Assembly (NCBI RefSeq): GCF_011751765.2
Contig: NZ_CP061169.1
Coordinates: 434,001 to 498,000, forward strand
Direction: 5' to 3'
Length of the DNA stretch: 64,000 nucleotides
Source: Paramicrobacterium chengjingii
Lineage (GTDB): Bacteria > Actinomycetota > Actinomycetes > Actinomycetales > Microbacteriaceae
The first letter of the stretch is position 1. Each line of letters begins with the position of its first letter. The notes beneath the pieces are model-generated. The model saw nothing but the letters and a program-made list of their open reading frames with translations. It was not told the origin of the DNA and ran no database searches. This document shows positions 57,566 through 59,785 of this stretch, piece by piece. A program made the position numbers and the translations under genes.

Positions 57566-58357
57566 ATGGGCGAGAACACGACGGATGCTGTCGACGGGCG
57601 ACGCCTGCGGGTGGCATTTGTGCCGGGCGTCACGCCGGACAAATGGTTTCGTACCTGGCGCGAACGCCTGCCCGACGTCGGGATCGCTGCGGTGCCGCTC
57701 GAGGATGAGCTCGAGCAGCGGCTGGTTCTGACAGACGGCCGTGCCGACATGTCGCTGGTGCGATTGCCGATCGACGACGAGGGGCTCCATGTGATTCCGC
57801 TCTACACCGAGAATCCCGTCGTGGTTGCGCCGAAGGGGCACCAGATCTCGGCGGTGGATGCCGTCGACATTGCCGAACTCGCAGATGAGCACCTGCTGCA
57901 GCATCCGGATGCTGTGCCAGAGTGGCGAGACGTCGCCCGCGAAGTCGCCGACGGAACACGTATCGACGTGCCGCCGATGACGCCGCGTGTCGCGATCGAG
58001 CTTGTCGGCGCCGGAGCCGGCATCGTGATTGTGCCGTTGTCGGTTGCGCGGCAGTTCGACCGCAAAGACGTGATTCGCAGACCCGTCAGCGGCGTGGCAG
58101 AGACCCGCGTGGCGCTCTGTTGGCCGGCCGATGCTGAGGGAGAACTCATCGAGCAGTTCATCGGCGTGGTGCGTGGGCGTTCGGCGAGAAGCACTCGATC
58201 GCAGGGGTCCGTTAAGGCGGAGCAAGAGGCGGCAAAGCAGCGTGCGGCAAAGAAGAAGGATGCCGCCCGGCGATCCGCAGAACAGGCGCGAGAACGCAAA
58301 AACGCAGACCGTGCTGCACGGCGCAAGGCGGGCGGGCGCAAGCGCGGGCGACGGTGA
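57566..58357 (+). CDS. LysR-type effector-binding domain protein lacking a DNA-binding domain
   Basis: The 263-residue protein starts directly with the LysR substrate-binding fold: L-R-V-A-F-V-P-G-V-T-P-D-K-W at about 15-28 and R-V-A-I-E-L-V-G-A-G-A-G-I-V-I-V-P at about 136-152. There is no N-terminal helix-turn-helix. The last 55 residues are rich in Lys, Arg and Ala (K-Q-R-A-A-K-K-K-D-A-A-R-R), which could bind nucleic acid or a partner. It is divergent from the DUF5997 gene (62-base gap), whose product may supply the missing DNA-binding half. Confidence 0.82.
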   Translation: MGENTTDAVDGRRLRVAFVPGVTPDKWFRTWRERLPDVGIAAVPLEDELEQRLVLTDGRADMSLVRLPIDDEGLHVIPLYTENPVVVAPKGHQISAVDAVDIAELADEHLLQHPDAVPEWRDVAREVADGTRIDVPPMTPRVAIELVGAGAGIVIVPLSVARQFDRKDVIRRPVSGVAETRVALCWPADAEGELIEQFIGVVRGRSARSTRSQGSVKAEQEAAKQRAAKKKDAARRSAEQARERKNADRAARRKAGGRKRGRR

Positions 58358-58384: not shown

Positions 58385-59494
58385 TCACGCCACGGAAGTG
58401 CCGAAAAGCAGTCCGAGCAGGTAGGTGACGAGTGCCGCCCCGTATCCGATGGCGAGCTGCCTCAACGCGCGCTTCACTGGGGAGGCCCCCGAGAGCACAC
58501 CGACGATCGCACCGGTCACCAGAAGTGCGATGCCCACGAGCAGGGCCGCGATGATGATCGCGATCAATCCAGACGCGCCGAAGAGCAGCGGAATTACCGG
58601 GATAATCGCTCCAGACGAGAAGAAGCAGAAACTGGATGCTGCGGCACCCCACGCTGAGCCGATCGCCGAGTGGCTTTCGCTCTCGGTTTCAGACGGATGC
58701 TGCACAGCGTCGTCCCTGCCGTGTACGCACTCGAGACCGTAGAGGCGTTCGCGCGCGTGAGACTCAGCATCCTCTTCGGACATGCCGCGGGCGCGGTAAA
58801 CCAGGGCGAGCTCATTCGCCTCGGCATCCAGGTTGGGCAGAATGTTCGTCGTGTCGGGGTTGGGGAGGGTGGAGCTGAGAAGTTCGCGTTGCGATCGCAC
58901 TGAGACGAACTCCCCGGCGCCCATGGAGAGCGCGCCGGCGAGGAGGCCGGCGATGCCTGAGGCGAGAACGATCGCGCTTGAGACTCCCGTCGCCGCCATG
59001 CCGATCACGAGGGCGAGATTGGAGACGAGCCCGTCATTTGCGCCGAAGACAGCGGCTCGAAACGTTCCCGAGAGGCGCGTGCGTCCGCGGGCAGCGAGGC
59101 CACGCACCACTTCTTCGTGAATCTGCTCGTCTGCGGCCATGGCTTCGGTGGCGTCGGCGTCGGATCCATAGGGGGACCGGGCTTCTGCCTGTTGCATGAG
59201 GGCGAGCACGAAGATGGAGCCGAAGCGGCGGGCCAGAAACGCCAGCATTCTCGTGCGCATCTTCGTTCGGATGGGAAGCCCCACGTTCTCGCCGAGCAGG
59301 GCGACCCAGTGCGCTTCGTGGCGGCGCTCGGCATCGACAAGTCCGAGAAGGATCGCGCGTTCCTCACCGGAGCGCTTACTGGCGAGTTCTTCGTAGACGG
59401 CGGCCTCAGCGCGTTCGTCGGCGAGATACTGCCGCCAGCGTTTGACGTCTGCGGGGGTGGGGGTTCGGGGTGCGGCTGACTGAGCGTCGGTCAC
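58385..59494 (-). CDS. Ferritin-like/VIT1 metal transporter (MbfA-type)
   Basis: The GTG at 59494 behind AGGAGA gives 369 residues; upstream codons to 59617 belong to the riboswitch. Residues about 15-150 are a rubrerythrin-like domain with the E-x(n)-E-x-x-H metal pattern (D-E-R-A-E-A-A-V-Y and D-A-E-R-R-H-E-A-H). Residues about 155-369 are a VIT1/CCC1 transporter (F-G-A-N-D-G-L-V-S-N-L-A-L, M-G-A-G-E-F-V-S-V). Such fusions export or sequester iron or manganese. Control by a manganese riboswitch points to manganese. Confidence 0.9.
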   Translation of the reverse strand: MTDAQSAAPRTPTPADVKRWRQYLADERAEAAVYEELASKRSGEERAILLGLVDAERRHEAHWVALLGENVGLPIRTKMRTRMLAFLARRFGSIFVLALMQQAEARSPYGSDADATEAMAADEQIHEEVVRGLAARGRTRLSGTFRAAVFGANDGLVSNLALVIGMAATGVSSAIVLASGIAGLLAGALSMGAGEFVSVRSQRELLSSTLPNPDTTNILPNLDAEANELALVYRARGMSEEDAESHARERLYGLECVHGRDDAVQHPSETESESHSAIGSAWGAAASSFCFFSSGAIIPVIPLLFGASGLIAIIIAALLVGIALLVTGAIVGVLSGASPVKRALRQLAIGYGAALVTYLLGLLFGTSVA

Positions 59495-59550
59495 GGTTGT
59501 CTCCTGGTCGGCGGCCGGAGAAAACGACAAGACTCCGACCGTGTTCGGCC

Positions 59551-59665
59551 GAAGGTCTCGTTCGCCCGCGTACGGGTGGAGTGCCGGGCGCCTACCGTGG
59601 CACCAGTATGTCGACACTCCGCTTTGCCCGATGCTCCGGGCCGTGGGAACTACTCCCCTTCAAGC
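59551..59665 (-). ncRNA. yybP-ykoY manganese riboswitch upstream of the VIT transporter gene
   Basis: On the minus strand the leader holds the hallmarks of the yybP-ykoY family in order: GAAGGGGAGTAG (59661-59650), GTCGACATACTGG in the middle, and GAACGAGACCTTC (59563-59551). The first and last elements pair (GAAGG with CCTTC) to close the aptamer. Below it, GGAG (59536-59533) can pair with CTCC (59520-59517), which could otherwise pair with the ribosome site GGAG (59504-59501). This suggests control of translation, with manganese turning the gene on. Motif recognition is by eye. Confidence 0.82.
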
Positions 59666-59785
59666 TCGGTAGTCTACCTGGAGGGTTCGGCGAAGACCAG
59701 GGCACGGATGCCGCAGGGCGGAACTGCCCGGCGTGTCGCCCGAACGTGGGCTATCAACGCGCCAACGAACGGTTAACATTAAGCC

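What the first reader, a model, noticed from the sequence alone, without database searches (positions are those of the whole stretch)
59495..59680. Manganese riboswitch controls a ferritin-like/VIT transporter
The leader of the VIT gene holds the conserved yybP-ykoY elements in the right order and spacing, plus alternative pairings that could hide the ribosome site. The switch is known to sense Mn2+ and usually controls exporters. This ties a rubrerythrin-VIT fusion, usually discussed for iron, to manganese in this organism, and suggests translational rather than terminator control.
Basis: partly seen in the sequence, partly recalled or inferred. Interest (0 to 1): 0.75.

Follow-up and report, generated by a model that had tools for sequence, protein, structure and literature searches.

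The report
Manganese switch on ferritin-like VIT gene
The RNA leader of a gene for a ferritin-like VIT metal transporter in this actinobacterium looks like a genuine manganese-sensing riboswitch that the standard RNA library misses at its cut-off, which suggests that a transporter usually discussed for iron also serves manganese.

Summary
Confirmed. Window 59662-59550 (minus) is a yybP-ykoY (Mn2+) aptamer just upstream of a VIT fusion gene (start 59494). Rfam RF00080 stays below its cut-off (19.0 bits against 45), but also on the E. coli mntP leader (41.6), and finds nothing on alx. The element precedes 23 of 110 related VIT genes and covaries strongly. A model built from 100 leaders of other genes (97 of them GDT1) hits the window at E 2e-15, and both E. 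coli Mn switches. The VIT-leader model finds the element in 170 of 394 class genomes. Of 163 loci read, 162 precede GDT1 (116), VIT (24, nine of them picked as VIT relatives), Na/Ca-exchanger (12), TerC (5) or MntP (5) genes. A relay of four segments ending on the ribosome site predicts translational ON control; a terminator-like hairpin in the window leaves transcriptional control possible. GDT1 and MntP are not found in the host, but TerC, two CDF proteins and three P-type ATPases are, so VIT is a candidate Mn exporter, not proven the only one. Ligand binding, switching and transport are inferred.

The parts
59671..59676 (-). -10-like box TAGACT, just upstream of the aptamer
   Evidence: read; 23 TAnnnT places start 12 to 15 nt before the aptamer in 24 VIT leaders, 94 such places in 116 GDT1 leaders, but only 2 in 11 Na/Ca-exchanger leaders. 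The sigma-70 scan reports no promoter here.
59550..59662 (-). yybP-ykoY (Mn2+) aptamer: P1.1, L1, P1.2, P2, P3.1, L3, P3.2, P4
   Evidence: R2 68.6 bits, E 2.1e-15; covariation; RF00080 19.0 bits, below cut-off
59651..59656 (-). L1 loop GGAGTA (Mn/Mg site; adenine 59654 taken as the A-minor adenine A10)
   Evidence: GGGAGTAG in 158 of 163 R1 loci; role of L1 from PMC6754395 (passages)
59605..59611 (-). L3 loop ACATACT; 59609 corresponds to A48, whose N7 touches Mn2+
   Evidence: letter for letter the L3 of the Xanthomonas oryzae aptamer, ACA48UACU52 (PMC6754395, passages); ACA in 23 of 23 VIT leaders; TCGACA found by pattern in 152 of 163 loci
59626..59641 (-). P2 hairpin GCCCG...CGGGC
   Evidence: a hairpin of at least 4 pairs in this place in 23 of 23 VIT leaders, each folded alone; no shuffle control was run for it
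59546..59554 (-). segment A, CTTCGGCCG: 3' strand of P1 and following bases
   Evidence: A:B and P1 exclude each other (read)
59533..59541 (-). segment B, CGGTCGGAG: pairs with A (aptamer open) or with C (aptamer closed)
   Evidence: 9 pairs with A, 8 with C counted by eye; energies
59513..59520 (-). segment C, CTCCGGCC: anti-ribosome-site
   Evidence: C:D -12.8 kcal/mol, covers all 5 bases of AGGAG, shuffle p 0.047 for this leader
59501..59505 (-). ribosome-binding site AGGAG (segment D)
   Evidence: mean unpaired probability 0.64 with aptamer closed, 0.20 open
58385..59494 (-). ferritin-like/VIT fusion protein, 369 aa, GTG start
   Evidence: PF01988 residues 145-361; Rubrerythrin below cut-off; E30, E56xxH59, E104, E123xxH126 invariant in 30 of 30

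Best explanation
The leader is a Mn2+ riboswitch of the yybP-ykoY class that turns on translation of the VIT gene when cytosolic Mn2+ is high. Shown by sequence: the aptamer fold, the metal-site loops, the conserved pairings and the gene families that share the element. Inferred: with Mn2+ bound, L1 and L3 dock and P1 is held, so segment A is taken, B pairs with C, and the ribosome site D is free (ON). Without Mn2+, A leaves P1 and pairs with B, C is released and covers D (OFF). The VIT protein then exports Mn2+, possibly with Fe2+; its ferritin-like domain would bind or oxidise the metal on the cytoplasmic side. Confidence is for the Mn2+ riboswitch with ON control of this gene; the export step is less sure.
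For: Cross-family model R2 hits the window and 26 of 26 further sources: 23 VIT loci, the host's own TerC leader and both E. coli Mn switches. Covariation in VIT leaders and in leaders of other genes. L3 identical to the X. oryzae aptamer. 162 of 163 loci read precede GDT1, VIT, Na/Ca exchanger, TerC or MntP genes; without the nine VIT loci that were picked as VIT relatives it is 153 of 154. Relay: the summed A:B+B:C+C:D energy beats shuffles at p<0.05 in 20 of 21 leaders tested, the window among them (p 0.003); A fits its own B better than other leaders' B; ribosome site freer with the aptamer closed in 19 of 23. GDT1, MntP and Na/Ca exchangers were not found in the host.
Against: RF00080 is far below cut-off, though it passes in 2 of 14 control genomes. 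87 of 110 related VIT leaders lack the element, so the Mn link is not general for this protein family. C:D alone beats shuffles in only 7 of 21 leaders. In the window the unassisted fold favours the open state by 11.4 kcal/mol, so the ON state needs Mn2+ docking and co-transcriptional folding. Closed is not freer than open in 4 of 23; in L016 and L042 the ribosome site stays buried in both states. The host has TerC, two CDF proteins and three P-type ATPases that could also export Mn2+. No binding or transport data exist here.
Confidence: 0.85

Rival explanations
1. Same Mn2+ aptamer, but control is by transcription termination: the A:B hairpin followed by TCTTGTCGTT stops RNA polymerase when the aptamer is open.
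For: The scan calls this hairpin terminator-like; 2 such sites were found in the region against 0.1 expected in shuffles.
Against: Only 2 of 23 leaders have 4 or more T in the 8 bases after B (L003, the window's, and L015), whereas the relay to the ribosome site is widespread.
Confidence: 0.15
2. The riboswitch is real, but the VIT protein is mainly an iron exporter; Mn2+ is used as a signal for Fe/Mn balance and induces Fe efflux.
For: MbfA proteins of the same build are described as iron exporters under Irr (PMC7762939, passages; PMC7540006, passages). The latter says that VIT proteins carry Fe2+ and also Mn2+ and Co2+, iron being the main physiological one.
Against: The other genes under the same element here, all but one unassigned (L159), belong to families described as Mn exporters (GDT1/UPF0016, TerC, MntP; PMC9334652, passages) or to Na/Ca exchangers. 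GDT1 and MntP were not found in the host, though TerC, CDF and P-type ATPase genes were.
Confidence: 0.3
3. Chance resemblance: a GC-rich leader that happens to contain the motifs.
For: RF00080 below cut-off.
Against: Cross-family E 2e-15, covariation, gene associations.
Confidence: 0.005

Closest known systems
yybP-ykoY / Manganese riboswitch (RF00080), e.g. E. coli mntP and X. oryzae aptamers
   Same: L1 GGGGAGUA, L3 with the invariant A (window L3 is letter for letter that of X. oryzae), four-way junction, P1 switch helix, GAGACC 3' strand, upstream of metal exporters; models cross-match.
   Different: Actinobacterial form: G-C-rich pairs directly above L3 (CUGG...CCCGG, 20 of 20), variable P2, 19 bits with RF00080 (cut-off 45); the expression platform is a four-segment relay.
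MbfA membrane-bound ferritin (alphaproteobacterial iron exporter)
   Same: N-terminal ferritin-like domain plus C-terminal VIT-like domain (PMC7762939, passages).
   Different: MbfA is described as controlled by Irr at the promoter; here a Mn2+ riboswitch precedes the gene. No direct alignment with an MbfA was made.
UPF0016/GDT1 genes under yybP-ykoY
   Same: Same element, and A:B pairing with covariation, before GDT1 genes in this class; the association is known (PMC7380456: 328 of 333 screened strains, passage).
   Different: Different transporter family; GDT1 has no match over cut-off in the 60 genomes of the window's family that were searched.

Membership tests
yybP-ykoY Mn2+ riboswitch | Passes the RF00080 gathering score (a library cut-off, not a structural feature) | tested here: not met
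   19.0 bits against 45; E. coli mntP also fails at 41.6 and alx has no match at E<=1, so I do not treat this as defining
yybP-ykoY Mn2+ riboswitch | L1 GGGGAGUA with A-minor adenine and L3 with the Mn-contacting adenine | tested here: met
   residue roles from PMC6754395 (passages)
yybP-ykoY Mn2+ riboswitch | Four-way junction P1-P2-P3-P4 with covariation | tested here: met
   P1, P3, P4 covary; P2 hairpin in 23 of 23, folded one by one, its covariation not counted
yybP-ykoY Mn2+ riboswitch | Cross-match with known members | tested here: met
   R1 and R2 hit E. coli mntP (37.4 and 37.8 bits) and alx (20.5 and 34.7 bits); 5 of the 7 RF00080 places in the class coincide with R1 places
yybP-ykoY Mn2+ riboswitch | Binds Mn2+ and switches expression | not testable with these tools
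   needs in-line probing and reporter assays
Ferritin-like/VIT fusion (MbfA type) | C-terminal VIT1 domain | tested here: met
   PF01988 188.3 bits; solved relative VIT1 6iu3, E 8.9e-12
Ferritin-like/VIT fusion (MbfA type) | N-terminal ferritin-like domain with E and ExxH metal ligands | tested here: inconclusive
   Rubrerythrin below cut-off, 25 of 30 members at E<=0.1, E30, E56xxH59, E104, E123xxH126 invariant in 30 of 30; no fold could be predicted
Ferritin-like/VIT fusion (MbfA type) | Exports iron or manganese | not testable with these tools
   needs a deletion or transport assay

The most novel reading that the evidence does not exclude
In Microbacteriaceae, where UPF0016/GDT1 was not found in 60 genomes, the ferritin-like/VIT fusion has been recruited as a main Mn2+ exporter under an actinobacterial form of the Mn2+ riboswitch that works by a four-segment translational relay. 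The same switch also sits on Na/Ca-exchanger-type genes, so two transporter families outside the usual list of Mn exporters belong to the Mn2+ efflux set.
Probability: 0.43. Interest if true: 0.68.

Novelty: new member of a known kind. Interest (0 to 1): 0.55.

Why it matters
It ties a transporter family usually described for iron to manganese through an RNA element with a known ligand, gives a testable Mn2+ exporter for bacteria in which the common exporters GDT1 and MntP were mostly not found (0 and 5 of 60 over cut-off), and shows that the Rfam model at its cut-off misses a form of the Mn2+ riboswitch that our model finds in 170 of 394 genomes of the class.

Tried and rejected
RF00080 on the host genome gave two weak matches; both lie inside long ORFs (L001 309 aa, L002 406 aa) and are taken as chance. 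The window itself was not among that call's matches, although it scores 19.0 bits: the fast first look loses weak places. The alternative start GTG at 59617 (ORF of 410 aa) lies inside the aptamer; 59494, which follows AGGAG, is preferred. Literature: no paper linking VIT and a Mn2+ riboswitch was seen in the listings; the survey most likely to list such a gene (Dambach 2015) and Zeinert 2018 are not held, so a prior mention cannot be excluded. A tree of 70 VIT proteins (of 110; loci above L042 without the switch were thinned to one in three) needs 13 changes of switch presence, at least 5 forced by well-supported branches; it cannot tell gain from loss. Structure prediction of the fusion protein was tried six times and the machine was busy, then dropped.

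Limits. R1 was built from 20 of 23 leaders (L013, L042, L089 with long inserts left out). The genome searches score few candidates per genome and missed the host's own TerC leader, so their counts are lower bounds. Of the 120 listed class hits without a locus, 100 were fetched and 20 were not; weaker hits were not listed at all. The platform test used 21 of 23 leaders (L010, L047 too short after B); the permutation test used 153 of 163 loci (10 without a recognisable segment A). The L3 pattern TCGACA was found in 152 of 163 loci; the other 11 were not examined one by one. Downstream genes were assigned by tblastn against one representative per family; Pfam was run on the representatives and on two odd cases. 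A4 was made from 30 chosen relatives.

Full report
Observation. On the minus strand the window reads, from 59662 down, TGAAGGGGAGTAG, a short hairpin, GTGTCGACATACTGG...CCCGGCACTCC, a second hairpin and CGAACGAGACCTTCGG, followed by a leader and GTG at 59494. The gene is a VIT1 protein (PF01988, E 2e-55). RF00080 does not pass its gathering score; a permissive search gives 19.0 bits over the L3 hairpin.

Is the Rfam failure decisive? No. On the E. coli K-12 mntP leader the same library gives 41.6 bits, also below the cut-off of 45, and nothing at E<=1 on the alx leader; neither is reported at the gathering score. Both leaders are called Mn-sensing riboswitches in an abstract seen (PMC9603457). 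The model does pass its cut-off in 2 of 14 control genomes.

Related leaders. I took 110 loci with relatives of the VIT protein: 30 of the whole-genome matches and 80 named contigs. A few genomes occur in both sets. 23 of 110 hold the whole pattern upstream of the gene and 87 do not; no two of the 23 aptamers are identical. The 23 include Kocuria dechangensis (L047) and Arthrobacter koreensis (L089) besides several genera of the window's own family. Twenty of the 23 were aligned. The consensus fold has 27 pairs, 95.5% of cells paired, 14 pairs with changes on both sides, covariation 0.340 against 0.152 shuffled, 0 of 500 shuffles as high; with partners slid by one to three columns, 32 to 44% of cells pair. 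The P2 hairpin, which the alignment does not line up, is present in 23 of 23 when folded singly (no shuffle control).

Metal site. The X. oryzae crystal structure paper (PMC6754395, passages) gives L3 as ACA48UACU52, with N7 of the invariant A48 contacting Mn2+, and A10 of L1 making the docking A-minor contact. The window L3 is ACATACT, the same seven letters; ACA is present in 23 of 23 VIT leaders. Over 163 loci, GGGAGTAG of L1 is present in 158 and TCGACA of L3 was found by pattern in 152.

Cross-family test. Model R1 (from the 20 VIT leaders) finds the element in 23 of 60 genomes of the family and 170 of 394 genomes of the class. RF00080 finds 0 of 197 over cut-off and 7 of 197 at E<=0.01; 5 of those 7 places coincide with R1 places. 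I read 163 R1 loci: 25 family hits, 29 class hits that came with loci, 100 of 120 further listed class hits, and nine named VIT loci. Downstream are GDT1/UPF0016 in 116, VIT in 24 (nine of them the named loci picked as VIT relatives), Na/Ca exchanger in 12, TerC in 5, MntP in 5, unassigned in 1 (L159). R2 was built from 100 of these, none a VIT leader (97 GDT1, 2 TerC, 1 Na/Ca exchanger; own covariation). It hits the window at 59662-59550 with 68.6 bits, E 2.1e-15, and 26 of 26 further sources, including E. coli mntP and alx and the host's own TerC leader. The sequences of R2 are independent of VIT genes, but they were found with R1 and aligned to it.

Host inventory. By Pfam search the host has no MntP, GDT1 or Na/Ca exchanger, one TerC, two CDF proteins and three P-type ATPases; CDF, P-type ATPases and TerC are also listed as Mn exporter families (PMC9334652, passages), so other routes for Mn2+ may exist. 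The TerC leader holds a second, divergent copy of the element (34.4 bits with R1; 46.5 with R2), missed. In the family, GDT1 is over cut-off in 0 of 60 genomes (one weak match) and MntP in 5 of 60. The 25 switch copies found in 23 of 60 genomes sit on VIT (14), Na/Ca exchanger (7), TerC (3, all weak at 28 to 34 bits) and MntP (1). So the switch sits on different exporter types in different genomes.

Mechanism. After the aptamer come four segments: A (59554-59546), B (59541-59533), C (59520-59513) and D, the ribosome site AGGAG (59505-59501). A is also the 3' strand of P1. A pairs with B, B with C, C with D. In the 21 of 23 leaders that could be tested, the summed energy of the three helices beats dinucleotide shuffles at p<0.05 in 20; singly A:B does in 16, B:C in 11 and C:D in 7. 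For the window: A:B p 0.060, B:C 0.007, C:D 0.047, sum 0.003. Swapping A among leaders lowers the A:B score (0 of 200 permutations reach it for 153 loci; 1 of 200 for the 24 VIT leaders alone). With P1 held, the ribosome site is freer in 19 of 23 (mean 0.48 against 0.30; window 0.64 against 0.20; in L016 and L042 it stays buried in both). This predicts translational ON control by Mn2+. A -10-like box 12 to 15 nt before the aptamer (23 places in 24 VIT leaders) suggests that transcription starts at its edge. Against a purely translational reading, the window's A:B hairpin has a T-rich tail and scores as terminator-like; 21 of 23 leaders have 3 or fewer T in the 8 bases after B. The unassisted fold of the window favours OFF by 11.4 kcal/mol.

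The protein. The VIT part is clear. The N-terminal part matches Rubrerythrin below cut-off and keeps E30, E56xxH59, E104 and E123xxH126 in 30 of 30 aligned members, the E/ExxH pattern of ferritin-like sites (recalled, not from a call). MbfA proteins of this build are described as iron exporters (PMC7762939, PMC7540006, passages); the latter says VIT proteins also carry Mn2+ and Co2+. A 2022 review lists Mn exporters as MntP, CDF, P-type ATPase, UPF0016 and TerC (PMC9334652, passages), without VIT or Na/Ca exchangers.

Known or new. The riboswitch class is known, and its presence in actinobacteria was reported with older Rfam scores, e.g. Corynebacterium glutamicum terC at 49.1 bits (PMC3890552, one passage). 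GDT1 under yybP-ykoY is known (PMC7380456, passage). In Rhodococcus erythropolis a UPF0016 gene and a VIT gene both fall during phage infection (PMC10986025, passages), which would fit shared control but proves nothing. I saw no statement that a VIT gene is under this switch in the searches; the 2015 survey by Dambach is not held.

Verdict. Observation confirmed, interpretation supported, with Mn2+ binding, switching and transport still to be shown at the bench.

Noticed in passing
L274:1157-1252 (host genome G000:C1, upstream of the TerC match at 1438486-1439091): A second Mn2+ riboswitch-like element in the host, before its TerC gene, with a different L3 region and GTAT instead of GTAG after L1; missed by the genome searches with R1, found when the locus was searched directly.
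   Followed up: partly
L117, L122, L123, L126, L129, L131, L132, L140, L143, L144, L162, L244: Na/Ca-exchanger family genes (PF01699 checked on L117, L162, L244) lie under the same Mn2+ switch in 12 of 163 loci; possibly Mn2+ exchangers.
   Followed up: partly
L159:1689-3116: A long ORF without a Pfam match in its first 476 residues follows a 66-bit R1 match; the gene was not identified.
   Followed up: no
L275:4466-4572 and L276:4376-4499: RF00080 in Rfam 15 misses the E. coli K-12 mntP and alx Mn riboswitches at its gathering score; cut-off or seed could be revised.
   Followed up: yes
window 57566-58357 (+): ORF of 263 aa matching only the LysR substrate-binding domain; whether a DNA-binding part is present nearby was not examined.
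   Followed up: no
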